This document shows, one piece after another, positions 34,136 through 35,202 of a DNA stretch of 64,000 nucleotides (the first letter of the stretch is position 1; each line of letters begins with the position of its first letter). Position numbers and translations under genes: made by a program. A model generated the notes under the pieces. That model was not told where the DNA came from, searched no databases, and saw only the letters and a program-made list of their open reading frames with translations. The stretch comes from Gaertneriomyces semiglobifer (lineage: Eukaryota > Chytridiomycota > Chytridiomycetes > Spizellomycetales > Spizellomycetaceae), in NCBI GenBank assembly GCA_025558075.1, contig JAHLKF010000021.1, positions 62,001 to 126,000 of the forward strand, written 5' to 3'.

Positions 34136-35202
<1,067 letters not shown>

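What the first reader, a model, noticed from the sequence alone, without database searches (positions are those of the whole stretch)
35065..35069. Five-nucleotide microexon in RPS5
An exon of only TGGAG, between acceptor TTTGTAG and donor GTATGT, is required to keep the phase and to restore K-W-S-Y, conserved in yeast and human uS7. Exons this small challenge exon definition and most gene finders would skip it, shifting the frame of an essential ribosomal protein. It sits in a gene whose terminal coding exon is also only 11 nt.
Basis: partly seen in the sequence, partly recalled or inferred. Interest (0 to 1): 0.75.

Follow-up and report, generated by a model that had tools for sequence, protein, structure and literature searches.

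The report
Five-letter exon in chytrid ribosomal gene
A chytrid fungus splits an essential ribosomal protein gene so that one exon is only five letters long; it looks real and is probably shared by related chytrids, many of whose public gene models go wrong at this very spot.

Summary
The 5-nt exon TGGAG is at 35065-35069 (minus strand) of the only cytosolic RPS5/uS7 gene found in Gaertneriomyces semiglobifer (Spizellomycetales). The seven-exon CDS gives 204 aa, identical from end to end to the public G. semiglobifer protein, so the public model already contains the microexon. An AG-N5-GT arrangement alone is nothing special: 10,361 of 20,000 shuffles contain an in-frame 5-nt inner exon. Coding for W-S occurs in 38 of 20,000, and W-S with splice sites as good as the real ones in 0 of 20,000. 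Its donor and acceptor score like ordinary introns of this genome. Omitting the exon shifts the frame to a stop. No DNA of relatives was available, but their gene models fail here: in the first homology search 9 of 25 named chytrid models are broken at K|WS|Y, against 1 of 95 others. Five chytrid models (both searches) drop just the segment that here is the 5-nt exon plus the next small exon (5+37=42 nt, in phase). Best reading: an ordinary constitutive microexon, spliced by intron definition in two steps, probably shared by several chytrid orders and widely misannotated. New member of a known kind. RNA evidence is missing.

The parts
35134..35202 (-). RPS5 coding exon 1 (69 nt), ends ...LFNK|, phase 0
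35070..35133 (-). intron 1, 64 nt, GTGAGT...GCTAATAG...TTTGTAG; branch-point-like CTAAT (motif recalled)
   Evidence: donor 10.9, acceptor 7.5 bits
35065..35069 (-). microexon TGGAG = W + first two bases of S
   Evidence: identical protein P0003
34939..35064 (-). intron 2, 126 nt, GTATGT...TTTTTAACAG
   Evidence: donor 9.9, acceptor 8.4 bits
34902..34938 (-). coding exon 3, 37 nt, begins C|TAC (third base of the S codon)
34753..34836 (-). coding exon 4, 84 nt, begins DYI
34413..34688 (-). coding exon 5, 276 nt
34209..34341 (-). coding exon 6, 133 nt
34136..34146 (-). terminal coding exon GTAACCGTTAA, 11 nt

Best explanation
TGGAG is a genuine, constitutively included 5-nt coding exon of the RPS5 (uS7) gene of Gaertneriomyces semiglobifer. 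Two ordinary GT-AG introns flank it and are each recognised by intron definition. Because a 5-nt exon is unlikely to hold an acceptor complex and a donor complex at once, they are most likely removed one after the other (inferred). Either order leaves the remaining splice sites intact (read from the sequence). Shown: sequence, phases, splice-site scores, protein identity with the public model. Inferred: inclusion in mRNA, sequential removal, and presence of the same microexon in several chytrid orders.
For: Spliced CDS of 204 aa with six GT..AG introns. Identical 204-aa public G. semiglobifer protein P0003. Spliced alignment with a flat intron cost and no splice-site model picks exactly this exon with 99 of 109 homologues at costs 6, 12 and 18, and 94 of 109 at 24 (P0003 itself included). 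Of 11 stop-free in-frame inner-exon candidates (up to 60 nt, outer sites fixed), TGGAG has the best summed splice score, 9.9+7.5 against 6.2+6.8 for the next, a 2-nt TT. Only 38 of 20,000 shuffles code W-S in a 5-nt exon, and 0 of 20,000 with sites as good. The four stop-free in-frame single-intron joins found replace W-S by 11 or more other residues. Only one cytosolic copy was found: the other S7 match (L001) lies in an ORF with a mitochondrial-type S7 (type judged by eye). Gene models of relatives break at the same boundaries.
Against: No transcript was seen. With sequence content alone and extra introns free, 30, 21 and 32 of 1000 shuffles scored as well as the real interval with three query proteins, so content alone is only about 2-3% by chance. 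The splice-site model rests on 19 introns, and their own scores are flattered by being in the training set. Relatives' DNA could not be read: their broken models point to boundaries at K| and |DY, and a fused 42-nt exon WSYDD... would explain the clean skips too. 16 of 32 chytrid models are intact here, and from protein alone it cannot be said whether their W-S is a separate exon. One non-chytrid model of the first search, P0002 (a fused tandem model), also lacks W just before T-Y.
Confidence: 0.93

Rival explanations
1. No microexon: exons 1 and 3 are joined by one intron with other sites, and the protein differs at W-S.
For: Four stop-free in-frame single-intron joins exist on paper (GT or GC donors from 15 nt before the end of exon 1, acceptors up to 15 nt into exon 3, intron of at least 40 nt).
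Against: All four extend exon 1 by at least 32 nt into intron 1 and put 11 or more other residues in place of W-S. The public protein of the species has W-S.
Confidence: 0.03
2. The in-frame pair of small exons (5+37 nt = 42 nt) is skipped together in some transcripts, so that a uS7 lacking 14 residues is really made; the deletions in models of relatives would then be true isoforms.
For: P0005, P0038, P0122 and P0123 run from K, and P0121 from Q, straight to DY. In G. semiglobifer the skip keeps frame (5+37 nt).
Against: Powellomyces hirtus has a second public model with the segment (P0006 against P0121). The skipped piece holds the conserved W of uS7. Automated annotation of plants often misses such exons (PMC8831610, passages).
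Confidence: 0.04
3. Skipping of the 5-nt exon alone is used as a switch: the frameshift gives a stop after seven codons and mRNA decay, tuning RPS5 output.
For: Skipping gives FNKLRRCRDP*. The genome has matches over cut-off to the UPF1 zinc-binding and Mago families, so nonsense-mediated decay is possible.
Against: The microexon's sites are not weak: its donor (9.9) lies in the upper half of the training donors, its acceptor (7.5) above 8 of 19 training acceptors. No test for regulation was made here.
Confidence: 0.05

Closest known systems
Small constitutive coding microexons of plants (1-15 nt; Yu et al. 2022, PMC8831610; abstract start and passages seen)
   Same: Tiny, about half not a multiple of three, mostly in major isoforms, conserved, often missed or wrong in reference annotations; a 5-nt example in rice was validated by RT-PCR sequencing.
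   Different: Here a chytrid ribosomal protein gene; 'fungi' and 'ribosomal protein' each occur 0 times in the main text of that paper.
Single-nucleotide exon of Arabidopsis APC11 (PMC4674806; passages seen)
   Same: Constitutive exon too small for exon definition; those authors find intron definition combined with stepwise (recursive) removal plausible.
   Different: 1 nt against 5 nt; plant; tested with constructs.
Trichoderma virens Xlr2 microexon (PMC11121469; passages seen)
   Same: Fungal microexon.
   Different: Alternatively used switch in a transcription factor; here inclusion is required for frame.

Membership tests
spliceosomal coding microexon (1-15 nt) | internal exon of at most 15 nt between canonical splice sites | tested here: met
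   5 nt between TTTGTAG and GTATGT; acceptor 7.5 and donor 9.9 bits on a model from 19 introns of the same genome
spliceosomal coding microexon (1-15 nt) | needed for reading frame / conserved protein | tested here: met
   frameshift and stop without it; 99 of 109 homologues choose it
spliceosomal coding microexon (1-15 nt) | present in mature transcripts | not testable with these tools
   no RNA data; the public model P0003 has it, but whether that model rests on transcripts was not seen
conserved microexon of chytrids | same exon in DNA of related species | tested here: inconclusive
   only protein models available: 16 of 32 named chytrid models broken at the site over two searches, the second biased to broken ones; first search alone 9 of 25
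stwintron (nested spliceosomal twin intron; definition recalled) | inner intron interrupts a splice motif of the outer one and nothing is retained between them | tested here: not met
   five exonic bases are retained in the model, and removing all 195 nt between exons 1 and 3 breaks the frame

The most novel reading that the evidence does not exclude
The microexon is ancestral to several chytrid orders, and its inclusion, or joint skipping with the following 37-nt exon, is regulated, giving either decay of RPS5 mRNA or a ribosome with a uS7 shortened by 14 residues.
Probability: 0.08. Interest if true: 0.7.

Novelty: new member of a known kind. Interest (0 to 1): 0.4.

Why it matters
It is a clean test case for splicing of tiny exons in fungi: an essential, highly conserved protein with one cytosolic copy found, so skipping would be visible. 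If shared by chytrids, as the broken models suggest, a core ribosomal protein is wrongly annotated in a number of public chytrid genomes, which matters for phylogenomics and for annotation pipelines. It would also extend to early-diverging fungi the pattern of conserved, misannotated microexons described in plants.

Tried and rejected
Considered and rejected: single-intron joins; other inner exons, of which the best alternative is a 2-nt TT right after CTAATAG, too close to the branch-point-like motif (my judgement); retention of intron 1, of intron 2 or of both, each of which meets a stop; stwintron (see membership test); a second cytosolic copy (none found, though that search scores only best candidates).

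Led nowhere: DNA of relatives. The viral-contig scan gave one locus, L004, an intronless distant relative next to phage-like genes. Eight literature searches gave no title or abstract start that reports this exon: microexon with fungi (30 of 61 listed), with chytrid (3 of 3), with ribosomal protein, constitutive and plants (4 of 4), micro-exons with fungal, splicing and intron-rich (2 of 2), Gaertneriomyces semiglobifer with intron (5 of 5), smallest exons (15 of 870), chytrid with exon skipping and the like (6 of 6), microexon with S. pombe (10 of 10). Subscription journals are mostly not held there. In ten other ribosomal protein gene copies of seven families the smallest internal exon was 48 nt; that aligner charges 14 per intron and could miss a tiny exon. 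Three first introns with an upstream piece under 30 nt were dropped before training.

Dropped rows and weak spots. In one search, 10 of 120 homologues were skipped for lacking the anchor motif and P0002 was left out, leaving 109; only the first 45 rows were printed, where the six misses at low cost are P0005, P0013, P0017, P0018, P0038 and P0040; the other four I did not see. P0018 (an alga) has an intact W and is a plain miss. The second homology search used a skip model (P0005) as query and so favours broken models; the unbiased count is the first search alone (9 of 25). In one search two of 95 other models of the first search lack my motif: P0001 does have K-W-S after VFGK and was missed by the pattern; P0002 is a fused tandem model that truly lacks W before T-Y. 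The printed Fisher p of 8e-6 counts both as broken. Over both searches 7 of 119 other models lack the motif (P0001, P0002, P0124, P0129, P0131, P0132, P0150): P0124 (Neocallimastix) starts afresh just before S-Y, and P0129, P0131, P0132 and P0150 lack or replace the whole start. The 32 chytrid models were picked by me by name from the listings (120 rows each, of 7697 and 7840 matches), leaving out anaerobic gut fungi, Gonapodya and Hyaloraphidium; five names were checked against the taxonomy, other placements are recalled.

Full report
What is there. On the minus strand, RPS5 (uS7) runs from the ATG at 35202 to the stop at 34136 in seven coding exons of 69, 5, 37, 84, 276, 133 and 11 nt. The six introns are GT..AG, of 64, 126, 65, 64, 71 and 62 nt. 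The 5-nt exon TGGAG (35065-35069) codes for W and the first two bases of S; exon 3 starts with the third base (C) and TAC. The spliced product is 204 aa. Leaving TGGAG out gives FNKLRRCRDP and a stop. The terminal 11-nt coding exon is also as described.

Whose it is. The protein is identical over 204 aa to a public Gaertneriomyces semiglobifer protein (P0003), a member of Spizellomycetales, Chytridiomycetes. So the public gene model already includes the microexon; I did not see what evidence that model rests on. The genome held (20.86 Mb) gave one other S7 match (L001), in an ORF whose S7 looks mitochondrial by eye.

Is it more than chance. AG-N5-GT occurs twice in the 195-nt interval between exons 1 and 3, the microexon included, and 10,361 of 20,000 dinucleotide shuffles of the interval contain some in-frame 5-nt inner exon, so the bare architecture means nothing. 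The content does: a 5-nt exon coding W-S appears in 38 of 20,000 shuffles, and one with splice sites as good as the real ones in 0 of 20,000. The splice-site model came from 19 introns of ten other ribosomal protein gene copies of this genome. The microexon's donor scores 9.9 bits (training range 5.7-10.7) and its acceptor 7.5 (range 0.1-15.8; 8 of 19 lie below). Intron 1, at 64 nt, sits in the 56-77 nt class of 14 of the 19 training introns. A weaker test also speaks: with a flat intron cost and no splice-site model, spliced alignment chooses exactly this exon for 99 of 109 homologues, P0003 itself included. But when the interval is shuffled under that flat cost (12 per intron), 30, 21 and 32 of 1000 shuffles do as well with three queries. 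Content alone is therefore suggestive; content with splice sites is strong.

Comparison with relatives. No DNA of relatives could be fetched, so I used their protein models as witnesses. In the first, unbiased search, 9 of 25 named chytrid models lack an intact LF-x-[KQ]-W, against 2 of 95 other models. Of those two, P0001 is a miss of my pattern (it has VFGKW) and P0002 is a fused tandem model that lacks the W, so the fair figure is 1 of 95. Over both searches 16 of 32 chytrid models are broken; the second search was biased to broken ones. The breaks are not random. P0005 (Gaertneriomyces sp. JEL0708), P0038 (Borealophlyctis), P0122 (Rhizophlyctis rosea) and P0123 (Blyttiomyces) run from K straight to DY, and P0121 (Powellomyces hirtus) from Q straight to DY; in G. 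semiglobifer that segment is exons 2+3, 5+37=42 nt, in phase. Powellomyces has a second public model with the segment (P0006). P0125 and P0138 read K-V-R-S... and K-V-S-R..., and P0013 K-V, as if the model ran through a donor (GT gives V) right after K. The Geranomyces models P0056 and P0057 read ...GYFPLSY, as if through a pyrimidine tract plus AG|C TAC, and P0017 reads FDVDSY; P0004 reads K-V-W-S-Y. P0126 lacks W-S-Y-E, 12 nt, which fits skipping 5 nt and using an AG 7 nt into the next exon. In P0040 and P0053 what precedes Y is foreign. P0148 (Nowakowskiella) is broken just before an intact W. These codon readings are inferences from protein letters. Together they suggest boundaries at K| and at |Y in several chytrid orders; a separate W-S microexon there is likely, but a fused 42-nt exon is not excluded species by species.

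How it works. Most introns seen here are short, so each is probably defined by its own ends (intron definition). A 5-nt exon is unlikely to carry both neighbouring splice complexes at once, so the two introns are most likely removed one after the other. Either order leaves intact sites: after intron 1, AACAAGTGGAG|GTATGT; after intron 2, TTTGTAG|TGGAGCTACG. A like model was proposed for the 1-nt exon of Arabidopsis APC11 (PMC4674806, passages). Regulation by skipping is possible in principle, since UPF1 and Mago family matches exist, but nothing seen points to it.

What is known. Coding microexons of 1-15 nt are well described in plants, including a 5-nt one in rice validated by RT-PCR sequencing; they are often misannotated and about half are not multiples of three (PMC8831610, passages). 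For fungi one paper calls their identification relatively limited, and reports a switch-like one in Trichoderma (PMC11121469, passages). The literature searches named under Tried and rejected listed no report of this one.

Verdict. The kind is known; the gene, the lineage and the pattern of broken models in relatives I did not find described. RNA reads would settle it.

Noticed in passing
L004:6-587: In an IMG/VR contig an intronless eukaryote-type uS7 ORF sits at the contig end beside phage-like genes (a ribonucleotide-reductase-like ORF among others, by eye). Probably a chimeric assembly.
   Followed up: no
window 35214-35422 (minus): Likely 5' UTR intron of RPS5: donor AAG|GTACGT at 35422, acceptor ATGAACAG ending at 35214, 11 nt before the ATG.
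   Followed up: partly
window 34837-34901 (intron 3 of RPS5): The boundary before DYI may be an old intron site: vertebrate models P0133 and P0137 carry insertions exactly between SLQ and DYI, starting with V, as from intron retention.
   Followed up: no
L028, L029, L030 (and L033, L034): Three RPS23 copies in this genome translate to the same 143 residues in my spliced alignment, and two RPL23 copies likewise, while intron sequences and lengths differ.
   Followed up: no
window 35756-39058 (minus): An uninterrupted 1100-aa open frame that looks like a copper-transporting P-type ATPase, in contrast to the intron-rich RPS5 next to it (judged by eye).
   Followed up: no
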